Below, in pieces: positions 36,634-58,249 of a stretch of DNA of 64,000 nt. The notes under the pieces were generated by a model. It was given only the letters and a program-made list of their open reading frames with translations, made no database searches and had not been told where the DNA came from. Both the position numbers and the translations under genes were made by a program. Origin of the DNA: Lysinibacillus pakistanensis (GTDB taxonomy: Bacteria > Bacillota > Bacilli > Bacillales_A > Planococcaceae); NCBI RefSeq assembly GCF_030123245.1, contig NZ_CP126101.1:4276501-4340500 (forward strand). The letters are read 5' to 3'. Position 1 is the stretch's first letter. Each line of letters starts with the position of its first letter.

Positions 36634-37059
36634 TAAATGATAATAATTAAATATAATTACCTTTTAAACCAATAAAAAAATTGAGCCATAATACATGGGA
36701 TTTTTGATCTGAACTAATCCACACAATTTAGTTCAGCTTTTATTTATGAATAAAATAAAATTTAGGATATTTAATTGTTAGATTTTATTGAGCGAGCAGC
36801 TCGACCAACAGAAAGCTGGGGCTATTATTACTCGCACAGTGTCCATGCAACTGGTTACACATCATTGATAAACTTCGAAAAACTCTCTCCAATTGGTTAA
36901 AAATGGTTTAAGGACACAAAAATGTCAAAGATCACTATTGAAATGTAATTATTTGTAATGATAGGATTAAATTAACTCGAGCGAACGTCAATTGCTGTAG
37001 CAACTTATATTTTTAGATACAATTCTATTATTTTTTTAAATTTGTGAAGGAAGGTTAGT

Positions 37060-37932
37060 GTGAGAGATTTAAAAAAAGGTACTATTTATGCAATAATTTC
37101 AGCTATTTGTTTTGGTATTATGCCCATTTTCGCTATAAAAGCTTATAGCTATGGGATTTCTGTTTATACATTACTGGTTTTAAGATTTTCAATAAGTTCT
37201 TTACTCTTTTTTTTGTTTCTTTTATGGAAAAAAATACCTTTTAAAATTAGTAAAATAGATTTAAAGTTATTTTTTCTATTGGGTGGTGTTTTATTTACAC
37301 TGTTATCTGTCCTACATTTTGAATCATTAAAATATCTATCATCTGCTATGGCAGTTTTATTATTATTTTCATTTCCTATATTTGTTTCAATCTTTTCCTT
37401 TTTAATCTACAAAGAAAAGCTAAAGGTAAAATCAATCATAGCTTTATTTTTCACCTTTATTAGTATGATTTTTTTATTAGGCGTTTCTTTTCAAGGTATA
37501 AATATGAAAGGCGTATTGTTAGCGATATTAGCAGCTATTGTATATGCACTATATATGATTCTTGGAAAAAAAGTCACCGACAATAATTCCCCCGTTGTAA
37601 CAAGTACTTATGTTACCTCATTTGCTGCATTGGGTGTAATTTTCATAGGACTAATAAGCAGTGAGTTACATTTGAATTTTGATTCAAATGCATGGATATA
37701 TATATTCGGCATTGTTGTTATCTCAACGATTGTAGGTGAAATAACTTTATTTAAATCACTACAGATTCTTACTTCAACAAATGTTTCGATGATAAGTATG
37801 GTAGAGCCCATATTCACCTCTATCTTTGGCTTACTGTTTTTGCAGGAAGTAATGGAACCACTTCAACTATTGGGAGGTATTTTCATCTTAATAGGCTTAA
37901 CTTTCTTGATTTATTTTCAAAATAAAAATTAA
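37060..37932 (+). CDS. EamA/DMT-family transporter paired with a HisRS paralogue
   Basis: This 290-residue protein has ten transmembrane helices in two EamA repeats, with the second-repeat signature MVEPIFTSIFGLLFLQE near the end. It starts at GTG with GAAGGAAGG upstream. It differs strongly from the EamA protein at 31.8 kb. It lies 36 bp before a second histidyl-tRNA synthetase gene and both are visibly more A/T-rich than their neighbours, suggesting joint transfer. Export of a histidine-related or HisRS-targeting compound is a hypothesis drawn only from this pairing. Confidence 0.85.
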   Translation: MRDLKKGTIYAIISAICFGIMPIFAIKAYSYGISVYTLLVLRFSISSLLFFLFLLWKKIPFKISKIDLKLFFLLGGVLFTLLSVLHFESLKYLSSAMAVLLLFSFPIFVSIFSFLIYKEKLKVKSIIALFFTFISMIFLLGVSFQGINMKGVLLAILAAIVYALYMILGKKVTDNNSPVVTSTYVTSFAALGVIFIGLISSELHLNFDSNAWIYIFGIVVISTIVGEITLFKSLQILTSTNVSMISMVEPIFTSIFGLLFLQEVMEPLQLLGGIFILIGLTFLIYFQNKN

Positions 37933-37968
37933 TATGATTCAAATACTCATCGAAAGGAAGATTCAAAG

Positions 37969-39297
37969 ATGATTTCTAACCTAAACGAAAAAACTCTATC
38001 AATTCCTGAGGGAACCGAAGATGTATTAGGAATTGACATGAGATATCGAGAACACATCATCAATATAATTAAAGGCGTTTATGAAAACTATGGTTTCAAT
38101 CCACATAAAACACCTATTTTAGAATACTTAGAAACATTTAACGGACATCACGGGGAAGGAGAAAAGTTATTTTTTCATATAAAAGATAAAAATGAAAAAT
38201 TTCTTATTCCTCGCTATGATCTAACTGTACCGCTGGCCAGAGTAGTAAGTATGTATCCAAATATACCGAGACCTTATAAAAGATATCAAATTGGTCCATC
38301 TTTTAGAGATGATCAGCCTGGAAAAAGTCATTTTAGAGAATTTACACAATGCGACGCTGATATTATTGGCTCAGACAGTTTATTAGCTGAAATCGATATT
38401 ACAATAATGGCCCATGAATTGATTAATAAGTTAGGAATAAAAAACTTTGTTTTGAAAATAAATCATAGACTACTTATTCAAGCCTTAGCTCTTAAAGTTG
38501 GTTTGAATACCAAAGAAGAACACCTTGGATTACAAAGAGCCTTAGATTATGCAGATAAAATTTCAAAAGACGGATTACAAGGTATAAAAAATAAACTAAT
38601 CGAAAATAAAATTCCACTGAATATTGCTAATCAAATACTAATTGAAATTGAGTGTTTTTCTAACCTTTTAGCTCAATATGAGGATTTACAAAATCAAATA
38701 AGTCAAATTGAAAAGTTCTTTAATTACTGTCTCTCTTCTACGAAGGCCACAGCCGATTTGAAATTTATCCTCTCTTATTTACCAAAAAATGTTCAATCAA
38801 ACATCAAAATTGATTTAACATTAGCAAGGGGAGCAGATTATTATACAGGCTATATATTAGAGGGTTTGGCTATTGACTCTGAAATCGGAGCAATTTTAGG
38901 TGGTGGGCGATACAATAATTTAGTTTCTGCTGTTGGCAATTTAAATGAACCAGGAGTTGGCTTAGCCTTTGGTTTAGAAAGATTATTATCAGTATTGAAA
39001 AGCCTAGATTATATTGACAAAAATATATTACTGCCTCATAAAATATTATTAGCTGATACCAACGAGGAGTTCCATCCTAAGATTTTTCATATCGCTCGTG
39101 AATTAAGAAAATACTATGATGTTGACATTTATTATAACCACACTCAATTTGAAGATATAATCCATTTTGCTCAGGAAAATAAGCATCAAATTATTATAGA
39201 GCTTATTGGGGACCGTCCATTCATTCACTCTGTTATAGAGAATGAGACATTTAAGTTGGAAGTAACAGATATTTTAAATAGTTTAGATTTTATATAA
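37969..39297 (+). CDS. Second histidyl-tRNA synthetase, eukaryote/archaeal-like type
   Basis: This 442-residue class II synthetase has motif 1 around 37-53, RYDLTVPLAR (82-91), motif 2 RYQIGPSFRDDQPG followed by HFREFTQCDADIIG, the histidine motif LARGADYYTGY with catalytic R287, and motif 3 GVGLAFGLERLL. RYDLTVP(F/L)AR and REFxQCDxDIxG are typical of eukaryotic and archaeal HisRS; standard bacterial HisS has RPEGT. Catalytic residues are intact, so it may charge tRNA-His. The anticodon-binding domain (about 350-442) is diverged. It follows an EamA gene with GAAAGGAAG upstream, and could be a resistant or specialised HisRS. Confidence 0.85.
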   Translation: MISNLNEKTLSIPEGTEDVLGIDMRYREHIINIIKGVYENYGFNPHKTPILEYLETFNGHHGEGEKLFFHIKDKNEKFLIPRYDLTVPLARVVSMYPNIPRPYKRYQIGPSFRDDQPGKSHFREFTQCDADIIGSDSLLAEIDITIMAHELINKLGIKNFVLKINHRLLIQALALKVGLNTKEEHLGLQRALDYADKISKDGLQGIKNKLIENKIPLNIANQILIEIECFSNLLAQYEDLQNQISQIEKFFNYCLSSTKATADLKFILSYLPKNVQSNIKIDLTLARGADYYTGYILEGLAIDSEIGAILGGGRYNNLVSAVGNLNEPGVGLAFGLERLLSVLKSLDYIDKNILLPHKILLADTNEEFHPKIFHIARELRKYYDVDIYYNHTQFEDIIHFAQENKHQIIIELIGDRPFIHSVIENETFKLEVTDILNSLDFI

Positions 39298-39394: not shown

Positions 39395-39444
39395 CCAAAA
39401 TAAAAATGTACATTACTAAAAATTTAATTTAGTAATGTACATTT
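39395..39444 (-). terminator. Long perfect stem, terminator for the LemA-TPM operon
   Basis: Seventeen-base perfect arms (39404-39420 and 39428-39444, AAATGTACATTACTAAA) with a 7-nt loop are followed by TTATTTTGG on the minus strand. It also faces the HisRS gene on the plus strand, where the U run is poor. A third copy of the arm core TAGTAATGTACA lies at 39476-39487. Confidence 0.65.
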
Positions 39445-57084: not shown

Positions 57085-58249
57085 CGCCAACTTCCTCCTG
57101 TCCAACAACAACTACCTCTGAAAAATAAGCTAAAAATGCTTTTTCATCGACTAAGCTACTTCTTAATTGCAAGGTAGCCTGTTTACCTGCCGCTCGTAAA
57201 ACCTGTACCTTTGCTAGTGCCTCCTCGAATTGCTCTTCCTCAAAAAGCACAACCACTGCCTCTTCACGCTCTTTTGCGAGTCCATTAAGTGTTTCTAAGA
57301 GGCGATCAACGCGAATACTAAACCCAGTAGCACCTACTTTTGAGCCAAACACCTCAAGTAATCCGTCATAACGACCACCGTTACCTAATGGGAATCCACT
57401 TCCTAATGCAAACACTTCAAATAGCATGCCTGTGTAGTAGCTCATATGACTAGAGAGTGTGAAATCAAAGGCTACATAATCCTCTAAATTTGCAATTTCA
57501 AGTAGTTTAGCAAGCTGTTGCATATATTCTAATGCGTCATTTTTTCGCACATATTTTTCAATATCTTTGATTTCTTTTAAATTCATTGCTTCCTCAATAA
57601 ATTGTAGTAATGCATCTGTTTTCGCTTTAGGTAAATTAAAAGATTCTACCGCTTCTTCAAACCCAACATAGTTTCGTTGCACAAGAAGTGTTCGGAGTAT
57701 GTCTTGCTGTTCCACGCTTTCCGTATAATCTTGTAAAATGCAATTTAAGATGCCCGCATGACCGATAGTAACTTTAAATTGAGATAATCCATATTGCTGT
57801 AATAGCTCCATTGCCGTCACAATCACTTCAGCGTCAGCAAACACAGAATTGTCTCCAATTAGCTCGATTCCCATCTGATCAAATTCTGCAGGACGCCCAC
57901 CTTCAGTTTCTTGTGCACGAAAGACACTTGCAAAATAAGCAAGACGTATTGGTATCATCTCTTTTAATAATTTAGATGTGGCAACCCGAGCAATTGGTGT
58001 TGTCATATCTGGTCGTAGTACTAATGTGTTTCCCTGACTATCTACGAGCTTAAATAAATGGGCATCGGCAATCGCAGAGGCTTTTCCAACTGTATCAAAA
58101 TACTCTACGGCAGGTGTCATAATAAATTCATAACCTCTGCTGCATAAAAAGTCTCGTCCAGTATTTCTTACAGCCTCTACCTTTTCGTATATTTGTGGAA
58201 ATGTATCGCGCATTCCAAGTGGTTTCTCAAACATTTTAATTGAAGACAT
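57077..58249 (-). CDS. hisZ: ATP phosphoribosyltransferase regulatory subunit HisZ
   Basis: This 390-residue HisRS paralogue forms a complex with short HisG and confers activity and histidine feedback. It has class II-like segments [34 protein letters not shown] and [10 protein letters not shown], but its HisRS active site and anticodon domain are altered. It is distinct from the HisRS at 38 kb. It is the first gene of the his operon, behind a promoter flanked by repeated sites. Confidence 0.93.

What the first reader, a model, noticed from the sequence alone, without database searches (positions are those of the whole stretch)
37060..39297. AT-rich EamA transporter plus eukaryote/archaeal-like HisRS cassette
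The second HisRS keeps all catalytic motifs but has RYDLTVPLAR and REFTQCDADIIG, as in eukaryotic and archaeal enzymes, instead of the RPEGT of bacterial HisS. It is 36 bp behind an EamA exporter, and both are richer in A/T than their surroundings. An insensitive synthetase plus an exporter is a familiar layout for self-protection against a synthetase inhibitor. The cassette could thus confer resistance to a histidine analogue or HisRS inhibitor.
Basis: partly seen in the sequence, partly recalled or inferred. Interest (0 to 1): 0.7.

Follow-up and report, generated by a model that had tools for sequence, protein, structure and literature searches.

The report
Exporter paired with HisRS-derived adenylating enzyme
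A small mobile two-gene unit in a Lysinibacillus bacterium joins a membrane exporter to an enzyme that looks like a histidine-loading translation enzyme but has probably stopped serving translation, and it more likely makes and secretes an unknown small molecule than protects against an antibiotic.

Summary
The pair is real: EamA exporter 37060-37932 and HisRS-like gene 37969-39297, 36 bp apart, the most AT-rich stretch of its length in the window. The host, a Lysinibacillus, also has normal hisS, a PRK12420-type HisRS and HisZ. The pair recurs in the same order in 5 of 32 Lysinibacillus genomes, Paenibacillus wynnii, Anaeromicropila and Terrilactibacillus, at different sites, so it travels.

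Self-protection is not the best reading. The HisRS-like protein belongs to a distinct clade: Arg121 to His (121 of 122 rows), Leu261 to Ala (122 of 122), adenylation residues kept. Its anticodon domain is hardly recognisable (Pfam 1 of 20 members scanned, against 14 of 14 other HisRS). In three Lysinibacillus genomes the same exporter lineage is paired instead with an unrelated amino-acid-adenylating protein, a stand-alone NRPS adenylation domain. The common factor is aminoacyl-AMP formation, not a drug target.

Best explanation (0.5): the HisRS-derived enzyme activates histidine or a similar amino acid for a small product that EamA exports. Substrate, acceptor and product are unknown; nothing was tested at the bench. 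Resistance remains possible (0.15).

The parts
36938..36981 (+). Probable promoter of the unit: -35-like TTGAAA 36938-36943, -10-like TAGGAT 36962-36967, with 36951-36981 (31 bases) identical in 5 of 5 Lysinibacillus copies from two different chromosomal settings
   Evidence: promoter role is inferred. The region as a whole holds no more promoter-like sites than shuffles give (23 against 18.7)
37060..37932 (+). EamA/DMT exporter, 290 aa, GTG start after an AAGGAAGG ribosome site
   Evidence: exporter-lineage tree
37969..39297 (+). HisRS-derived protein ('HisRS-L'), 442 aa; proposed aminoacyl-adenylate-forming enzyme
38137..38166 (+). Clade signature loop around GHHGEGEK (residues 57-66): H60 120/122, H61 122/122, E65 122/122; low model confidence, so possibly mobile
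38302..38367 (+). Motif 2 region (residues 112-133) with Arg113 kept, Arg121 changed to His (codon 38329-38331), Gln127 and Asp131 kept
38821..38850 (+). LARGADYYTG segment (residues 285-294): Arg287 kept, Leu261-equivalent changed to Ala289 (codon 38833-38835)
39022..39294 (+). C-terminal domain (residues about 352-442): alpha/beta fold kept in the model, anticodon-domain sequence signature not detectable
39404..39444 (+). Terminator-like palindrome (17 pairs) after the unit; a near-identical one in G004, not seen after the copies at other sites, so it may belong to the site

Best explanation
The unit is a horizontally moved two-gene cassette: an EamA-family exporter and a HisRS-derived enzyme specialised for amino acid adenylation. 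The enzyme probably activates histidine (or a closely similar amino acid) as aminoacyl-AMP and passes the aminoacyl group to a non-tRNA acceptor, either a small amine or a carrier, enzymatically or by release of the reactive adenylate. The exporter then secretes the product. Shown: the pair, its recurrence and mobility, the conserved adenylation residues, the lost anticodon-domain signature, and the replacement of the HisRS-like partner by an NRPS adenylation-domain protein in the same exporter lineage. Inferred: that aminoacyl-AMP is made, that tRNA(His) is not the acceptor, and that EamA moves the product outwards. Unknown: amino acid, acceptor, product and benefit.
For: (1) Pairing. The HisRS-like gene follows EamA in 5 of 5 HisRS-L copies among 32 Lysinibacillus genomes, and in P. 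wynnii, Anaeromicropila and Terrilactibacillus. (2) Partner swap. All 8 EamA-lineage loci found at E<=1e-45 in 261 genomes of the order sit directly before either HisRS-L (5) or a partial-condensation plus adenylation protein (3). The adenylation-paired EamAs are nested within the HisRS-paired ones in a 100/99-supported clade (the exact sister group is weaker, 91/86 and 93/87). All 3 such adenylation genes found in the order at E<=1e-170 are next to this EamA. A fourth case is hinted at by a shared contig length of 7635 (P0125 and P0245). (3) Adenylation core kept: Arg113, Gln127, Asp131, Arg259, Tyr264 and Arg311 equivalents in 122 of 122 clade rows. (4) tRNA side eroded: HGTP_anticodon in 1 of 20 clade members against 14 of 14 other HisRS; C-terminal identity 0.16 where catalytic identity is 0.55-0.65, against 0.30 in other HisRS. 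The Arg116 position in the motif 2 loop (a tRNA-acceptor contact, recalled) is Glu or Asp in 71 of 122 clade rows (Gln in the window protein, Lys in 35), Arg or Lys in 26 of 31 controls. (5) Selection: omega about 0.09-0.15 for both genes between the window copy and the other Lysinibacillus copies. (6) Precedent: aaRSs and NRPS-type adenylating enzymes interchangeably release alanyl-AMP for the pyrazinone signal DPO (PMC12930378).
Against: No biochemistry. The C-terminal domain keeps its fold and is still under purifying selection inside the genus (omega 0.12-0.19), so it is not simply decaying and could still bind an RNA. No acceptor, carrier or tailoring gene sits in the pair, which is odd for a biosynthetic unit. 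Outside the Bacillota subclade I saw no link between this HisRS clade and EamA: of the contig lengths listed for the best 120 HisRS hits (119 compared) and the best 120 of 162 EamA hits, only two agree, P. wynnii and Anaeromicropila. Two close HisRS relatives, P0003 and P0004 (55% and 53%), have no EamA of matching contig length in that capped list. Arg121 to His could also weaken adenylation. The adenylation partner has only part of a condensation domain, so it could be an NRPS remnant, although it is conserved under selection (omega 0.2). The adenylation genes of other genera (P0244-P0250) were not seen in context. The DPO precedent also shows limits: SerRS and TyrRS, which do not activate alanine, gave no product there.
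Confidence: 0.5

Rival explanations
1. Self-protection cassette: an inhibitor-insensitive HisRS keeps tRNA(His) charged while EamA pumps out a HisRS inhibitor or histidine analogue.
For: Duplicate, divergent, insensitive aaRSs next to normal ones are a known resistance layout (IleRS2, SerRS2, TrpRS1; PMC9437257 passages). All pair-bearing genomes checked have a separate hisS. Patchy, mobile distribution fits resistance.
Against: A resistance synthetase must still charge tRNA(His), yet the anticodon-domain signature is missing in 19 of 20 clade members scanned while present in 14 of 14 other HisRS. The same EamA lineage pairs with an NRPS adenylation protein. No inhibitor genes were noticed beside it.
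Confidence: 0.15
2. Amino acid:carrier-protein ligase variant: the enzyme loads histidine (or another amino acid) on a phosphopantetheine carrier encoded elsewhere, as part of a pathway whose product EamA exports.
For: aa:CP ligases are class II aaRS homologues that lost tRNA binding (PMC9437257 passage). The alternative partner is an adenylation domain without its own carrier, so both partners could load a carrier in trans.
Against: No carrier protein gene was noticed beside the pair in the ORFs listed. Why two enzyme families would share only the exporter is then unexplained.
Confidence: 0.15
3. Accessory tRNA(His) synthetase used under stress, with EamA as an incidental or metabolically linked neighbour.
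Against: Lost anticodon signature, clade-wide Arg121His and Leu261Ala, below the hisS equivalog cut-off. All three tRNA(His) genes found are ordinary G-1:C73. The exporter pairing would be chance, although it recurs.
Confidence: 0.1
4. Amino-acid sensor or regulator: HisRS-L binds histidine like HisZ and controls EamA, a histidine or amino acid overflow exporter.
For: HisZ is a known HisRS paralogue with a regulatory role (PMC9437257 passage); EamA proteins include amino acid exporters (NCBIfam matches to YddG and RhtA far below their cut-offs).
Against: HisZ does not adenylate, whereas this clade keeps the ATP-gripping arginines in 122 of 122 rows. The swap to an adenylation domain does not fit a sensor. 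It scores far below the HisZ cut-off (159.7 against 271.65).
Confidence: 0.08

Closest known systems
Bacterial histidyl-tRNA synthetase HisRS/HisS (TIGR00442; nearest solved relative by sequence 6nhi, Elizabethkingia)
   Same: Whole-length fold, motif arginines, residues aligned with the histidine pocket
   Different: Arg121His, Leu261Ala, GHHGEGEK loop, no detectable HGTP_anticodon in the window protein, below the curated hisS cut-off
HisZ, ATP phosphoribosyltransferase regulatory subunit
   Same: HisRS paralogue outside translation
   Different: HisZ lacks adenylation activity (PMC9437257 passage); here the adenylation residues are kept; a separate HisZ is present in the genome
aaRS-like natural-product enzymes SbzA (IleRS-like) and AcmF (AlaRS-like)
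   Same: aaRS paralogues turned to small-molecule aminoacylation (PMC12945691 passages; SbzA also in PMC9437257)
   Different: Other aaRS families, reviewed there among aminoacyl-tRNA-dependent enzymes; 'histidyl' and 'HisRS' do not occur in that review's main text. That they lie in larger biosynthetic clusters is recalled
Amino acid:[carrier protein] ligases (class II aaRS homologues)
   Same: Class II catalytic core that lost tRNA aminoacylation (PMC9437257 passage)
   Different: The known ones have lost the tRNA-binding domain; here a diverged C-terminal domain is kept; no carrier gene noticed nearby
Adenylate-forming enzymes feeding the DPO pyrazinone autoinducer
   Same: aaRSs and NRPS-type adenylating ligases are interchangeable sources of released aminoacyl-AMP (PMC12930378 abstract and passages)
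   Different: Those are enzymes with other main jobs, with alanine, and the paper proposes no dedicated synthase; here a dedicated gene travels with an exporter
Resistant duplicate synthetases (IleRS2, SerRS2, TrpRS1)
   Same: Divergent second aaRS beside a normal one (PMC9437257 passages)
   Different: Those still charge tRNA; here the tRNA side looks eroded, and the exporter also pairs with an NRPS adenylation protein

Membership tests
Histidine--tRNA ligase (TIGR00442 equivalog) | Score above the curated cut-off of 286.75 bits | tested here: not met
   274.5 bits; the same genome's hisS scores 514.6
Histidine--tRNA ligase (TIGR00442 equivalog) | C-terminal anticodon-binding domain (HGTP_anticodon) | tested here: not met
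   No match at E<=1 in the window protein; 1 of 20 clade members (E 0.00012) against 14 of 14 other HisRS. Fold still present in the model
Histidine--tRNA ligase (TIGR00442 equivalog) | Charges tRNA(His) | not testable with these tools
   Needs purified protein
Class II aaRS-type adenylating enzyme | Two phosphate-gripping arginines (motifs 2 and 3) | tested here: met
   Arg113 and Arg338 (E. coli Arg311), 122 of 122 rows in the clade; definition from PMC5919687 passages
Class II aaRS-type adenylating enzyme | Forms aminoacyl-AMP | not testable with these tools
   Inferred from residues only
PRK12420-type HisRS (NF009085) | Score above 540 bits | tested here: not met
   200.7 bits; the genome's other paralogue scores 589.9
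HisZ (TIGR00443) | Score above 271.65 bits | tested here: not met
   159.7 bits
EamA/DMT transporter (PF00892) | EamA repeats above the gathering score | tested here: met
   141.6 bits, two stretches
Self-resistance duplicate aaRS | Separate housekeeping synthetase in the genome | tested here: met
   Window genome and 8 of 8 handles searched, two of them apparently the same genome
Self-resistance duplicate aaRS | Inhibitor biosynthesis genes adjoining | tested here: inconclusive
   None noticed among ORFs of 80 aa or more within about 4 kb either side in the window or 8 kb either side in L009-L012, judged by eye; most ORFs were not scanned against families
Self-resistance duplicate aaRS | Retains tRNA charging and is insensitive to an inhibitor | not testable with these tools
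   Indirectly disfavoured
Amino acid:carrier-protein ligase | Carrier protein partner | tested here: inconclusive
   No carrier gene noticed in the listed neighbours; a carrier elsewhere not searched

The most novel reading that the evidence does not exclude
HisRS-L is a dedicated HisRS-derived synthase that makes, and releases or hands on, a histidyl-type adenylate to build a small secreted molecule (for example an N-acyl amine that can cyclise to a pyrazinone). The EamA lineage is a product-exporter module that has exchanged its adenylating partner between two unrelated superfamilies, a class II aaRS paralogue and an NRPS adenylation domain. It would be a minimal, mobile two-gene biosynthesis-and-export unit, a class that gene-cluster finders would probably not look for.
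Probability: 0.3. Interest if true: 0.8.

Novelty: new variant of a known kind. Interest (0 to 1): 0.6.

Why it matters
A review table of duplicated synthetases lists only HisZ as a HisRS paralogue function (PMC9437257 passage). A clade with an intact adenylation centre and an eroded anticodon domain, tied to an exporter that elsewhere takes an NRPS adenylation domain as its partner, suggests that the shared chemistry (aminoacyl-AMP) is what the exporter lineage follows. It gives a directly testable route to a new kind of small-molecule unit, and a warning that 'extra aaRS plus pump' need not mean resistance.

Tried and rejected
Phage or plasmid cargo: viral contigs gave no clade member. Two single-protein scans found no relative; the alignment scan gave one locus, L284, which has the ordinary RGLDYYTG form. 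The best phage and plasmid hits are at most 36% identical, and the EamA found no plasmid match at 1e-30. I did not inspect those hits for the signature.

T-box or other known leader RNA on the pair: none at E<=1, whereas canonical hisS has a T-box upstream.

A dedicated tRNA for the enzyme: 99 tRNA matches were found, but only 150 of 361 first-look candidates were scored. In the stretches fetched there are three tRNA(His), all GTG anticodon with encoded G-1:C73, read by eye. A degenerate tRNA-like RNA is not excluded.

EamA in general as the linked gene: EamAs about 40% alike are common in Bacilli (51 of 398 class genomes at E<=1e-38) beside unrelated genes in the loci read, so only the 18-row clade is meant. 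Three rows of that clade, P0125, P0128 and P0129, have unseen neighbours.

Wider HisRS clade: at the thresholds used, 1 of 398 genomes of the phylum (own only), 1 of 100 of the P. wynnii genus and 1 of 397 of the Anaeromicropila family carry it. In one search another 20 genomes passed 1e-70; 16 of these show the ordinary RGL form and the other 4 (L172-L175) an RGM form. Contexts of the metagenomic members could not be seen.

Limits of the counts: the 122-row clade is the best 120 of 3911 hits to the window protein, less P0079 (244-residue fragment), plus the window protein and two locus copies, so its outer limits are not sampled. The 20 members of A1 were chosen by me for spread. OWN_HisZ was left out of the control set; L172-L175 were missed by my pattern there, which accepted only Leu or Ala at 261, and were checked. 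They have Arg at 121 and Met at 261, so the control is Arg121 35 of 35, Leu261 31 of 35, Ala261 0 of 35. The control set holds no archaeal or eukaryotic full sequence; human and Elizabethkingia HisRS seen as alignments keep Arg and Leu. Several control proteins were cut short at the C-terminus by the match limits and still matched the anticodon domain.

Trees: one search is a quick tree with long branches flagged, used only for the clade split.

Recalled, not from a call: roles of Arg121 (ATP gamma-phosphate), Arg116 (tRNA acceptor end) and the histidine-pocket residues in E. coli HisRS; that HHxxxDG and GGxS mark condensation and carrier domains; the name GroEL for the broken ORF in L012.

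Papers: PMC12930378 abstract and found passages; PMC9437257, PMC12945691, PMC7916415 and PMC5919687 found passages (PMC7916415 not used); the others search listings only. Searches whose listings showed no description of this pair: in the open PMC library only.
Full report
What is there. The window holds an EamA transporter gene (37060-37932, +, 290 aa) followed after 36 bp by a HisRS-like gene (37969-39297, +, 442 aa), each with a plausible ribosome site. EamA is recognised over two repeats (141.6 bits), the second protein as tRNA-synt_His (130.9 bits). At 29.8% GC the pair is the most AT-rich stretch of its length in a 37.2% window. The genome belongs to Lysinibacillus: the same-genus genome G016 coincides with the named record of L. 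mangiferihumi.

Not the housekeeping enzyme. The 5.25-Mb one-contig genome has canonical hisS (514.6 bits on its model, T-box upstream), a PRK12420-type HisRS (589.9 bits), HisZ, and the window gene, which misses the hisS equivalog cut-off (274.5 against 286.75). Canonical hisS is also present in the other pair-bearing genomes checked (8 of 8 handles). The three tRNA(His) genes found are ordinary.

The pair is a mobile unit. HisRS-L is present in 5 of 32 Lysinibacillus genomes and 0 of 69 other relatives, each time just after EamA, and likewise in Paenibacillus wynnii (EamA 58%, HisRS 54%), Anaeromicropila populeti (42%, 41%) and Terrilactibacillus. The Terrilactibacillus copy is frameshifted, but that assembly also shows a broken GroEL-like ORF next door, so sequencing error is likely. 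Flanks differ between the hosts. At the window's site, between an S9 peptidase and a TPM-domain gene, 22 of 26 Lysinibacillus loci show the two flanking genes together without the pair, 2 carry the pair (window and G004), and 2 show no peptidase within the stretch held. G016, G019 and G021 carry the pair elsewhere. Whole-gene synonymous divergence between the window copy and those copies is 0.65-0.70 (0.45-1.03 by region), while hisS regions of the same genomes differ by 1.2-3.1, values near saturation. That fits transfer after the lineages split. A 31-base block (36951-36981), inside a promoter-like element at 36938-36967 and beyond, is identical in 5 of 5 copies from both settings, so the unit seems to travel with its promoter. 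Both genes are under purifying selection (omega about 0.09-0.15 against the window copy).

The tRNA side. Pfam's anticodon-binding domain is found in 14 of 14 other HisRS tested but in 1 of 20 clade members, not in the window protein, and I saw it in none of the precomputed domain lists of the 120 hits. Where catalytic parts are 55-65% identical, C-terminal parts are 16% identical in the clade, against 30% in other HisRS. The fold itself is still there, and inside the genus the domain is constrained (omega 0.12-0.19), so it has a role, but probably not anticodon reading. This is the strongest sequence argument against a resistant stand-in for HisS.

The exporter changes partners. Among 261 genomes of the order, the EamA lineage occurs at 8 loci in 6 genomes (E<=1e-45). 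Five sit before HisRS-L, three before a 733-736-aa protein consisting of the C-terminal part of an NRPS condensation domain plus a full adenylation domain, without carrier. G016 and G019 carry both kinds. The adenylation-paired EamAs are nested within the HisRS-paired ones (clade 100/99, inner clade 96/96). Their closest relatives (P0242-P0251) look like a stand-alone family: 10 of 10 lack HHxxxDG and a carrier motif, 10 of 10 have the A3 motif, and 9 of 10 match my A10 pattern. The Lysinibacillus versions are 70% identical with omega 0.2. Both partners should make aminoacyl-AMP, yet they are unrelated. An adenylation domain is not an inhibitor-insensitive copy of a translation target, so the shared chemistry is the simplest reason for the pairing.

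Mechanism proposed. HisRS-L activates histidine or a similar amino acid; the acyl group goes to an unknown acceptor; EamA exports the product. Released aminoacyl-AMP can react without a further enzyme: in DPO biosynthesis AlaRS, ProRS, ValRS, DltA and AlmE all supply alanyl-AMP that condenses spontaneously with aminoacetone, whereas SerRS and TyrRS, which do not activate alanine, do not (PMC12930378 abstract and passages). That precedent would explain why no second enzyme is needed in the unit. aaRS-like small-molecule enzymes are known from other families (SbzA, AcmF; PMC12945691 passages), and class II homologues that load carrier proteins exist (PMC9437257 passages).

Limits. There is no biochemical evidence. 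Contexts of most clade members are metagenomic and could not be read. Matching contig lengths link only P. wynnii and Anaeromicropila between the HisRS and EamA lists (119 of 120 listed HisRS rows compared with the listed EamA rows), and for P0003 and P0004 no EamA was found that way. The resistance reading stays possible at about 0.15. Ten paper searches showed no description of this pair in their listings (named under Tried and rejected), in an open-access library only.

Noticed in passing
L224 6276-9483, L225 6617-9813, L226 8732-11928: EamA paralogue followed by a stand-alone partial-condensation plus adenylation protein; relatives in Priestia, Paenibacillus, Bacillus and Viridibacillus (named rows among P0244-P0250) look like a stand-alone adenylation family.
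   Followed up: partly
L151 8003-9274 (genome about 1985 kb): A further HisRS-type gene, PRK12420 type (589.9 bits), besides hisS; similar second-best hits occur in many of the Lysinibacillus genomes. Its role is unclear to me.
   Followed up: no
window 36992-37003: Short inverted repeat TTGC-TGTA-GCAA in the leader of the pair; the copies at the other sites have a longer version (TTGCTG-TTG-CAGCAA), which might be an attenuator.
   Followed up: no
L012 (Terrilactibacillus sp. S3-3, CP129291.1): Many short broken ORFs, including a truncated GroEL-like one, suggest an indel-rich assembly, so the frameshifts in its pair are probably sequencing errors.
   Followed up: partly
L011 7103-9344: In Anaeromicropila the EamA and HisRS-like ORFs overlap by 17 bases as listed, suggesting translational coupling.
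   Followed up: no
window 57089-58225: HisZ lies about 18 kb downstream of the pair in the same window.
   Followed up: no
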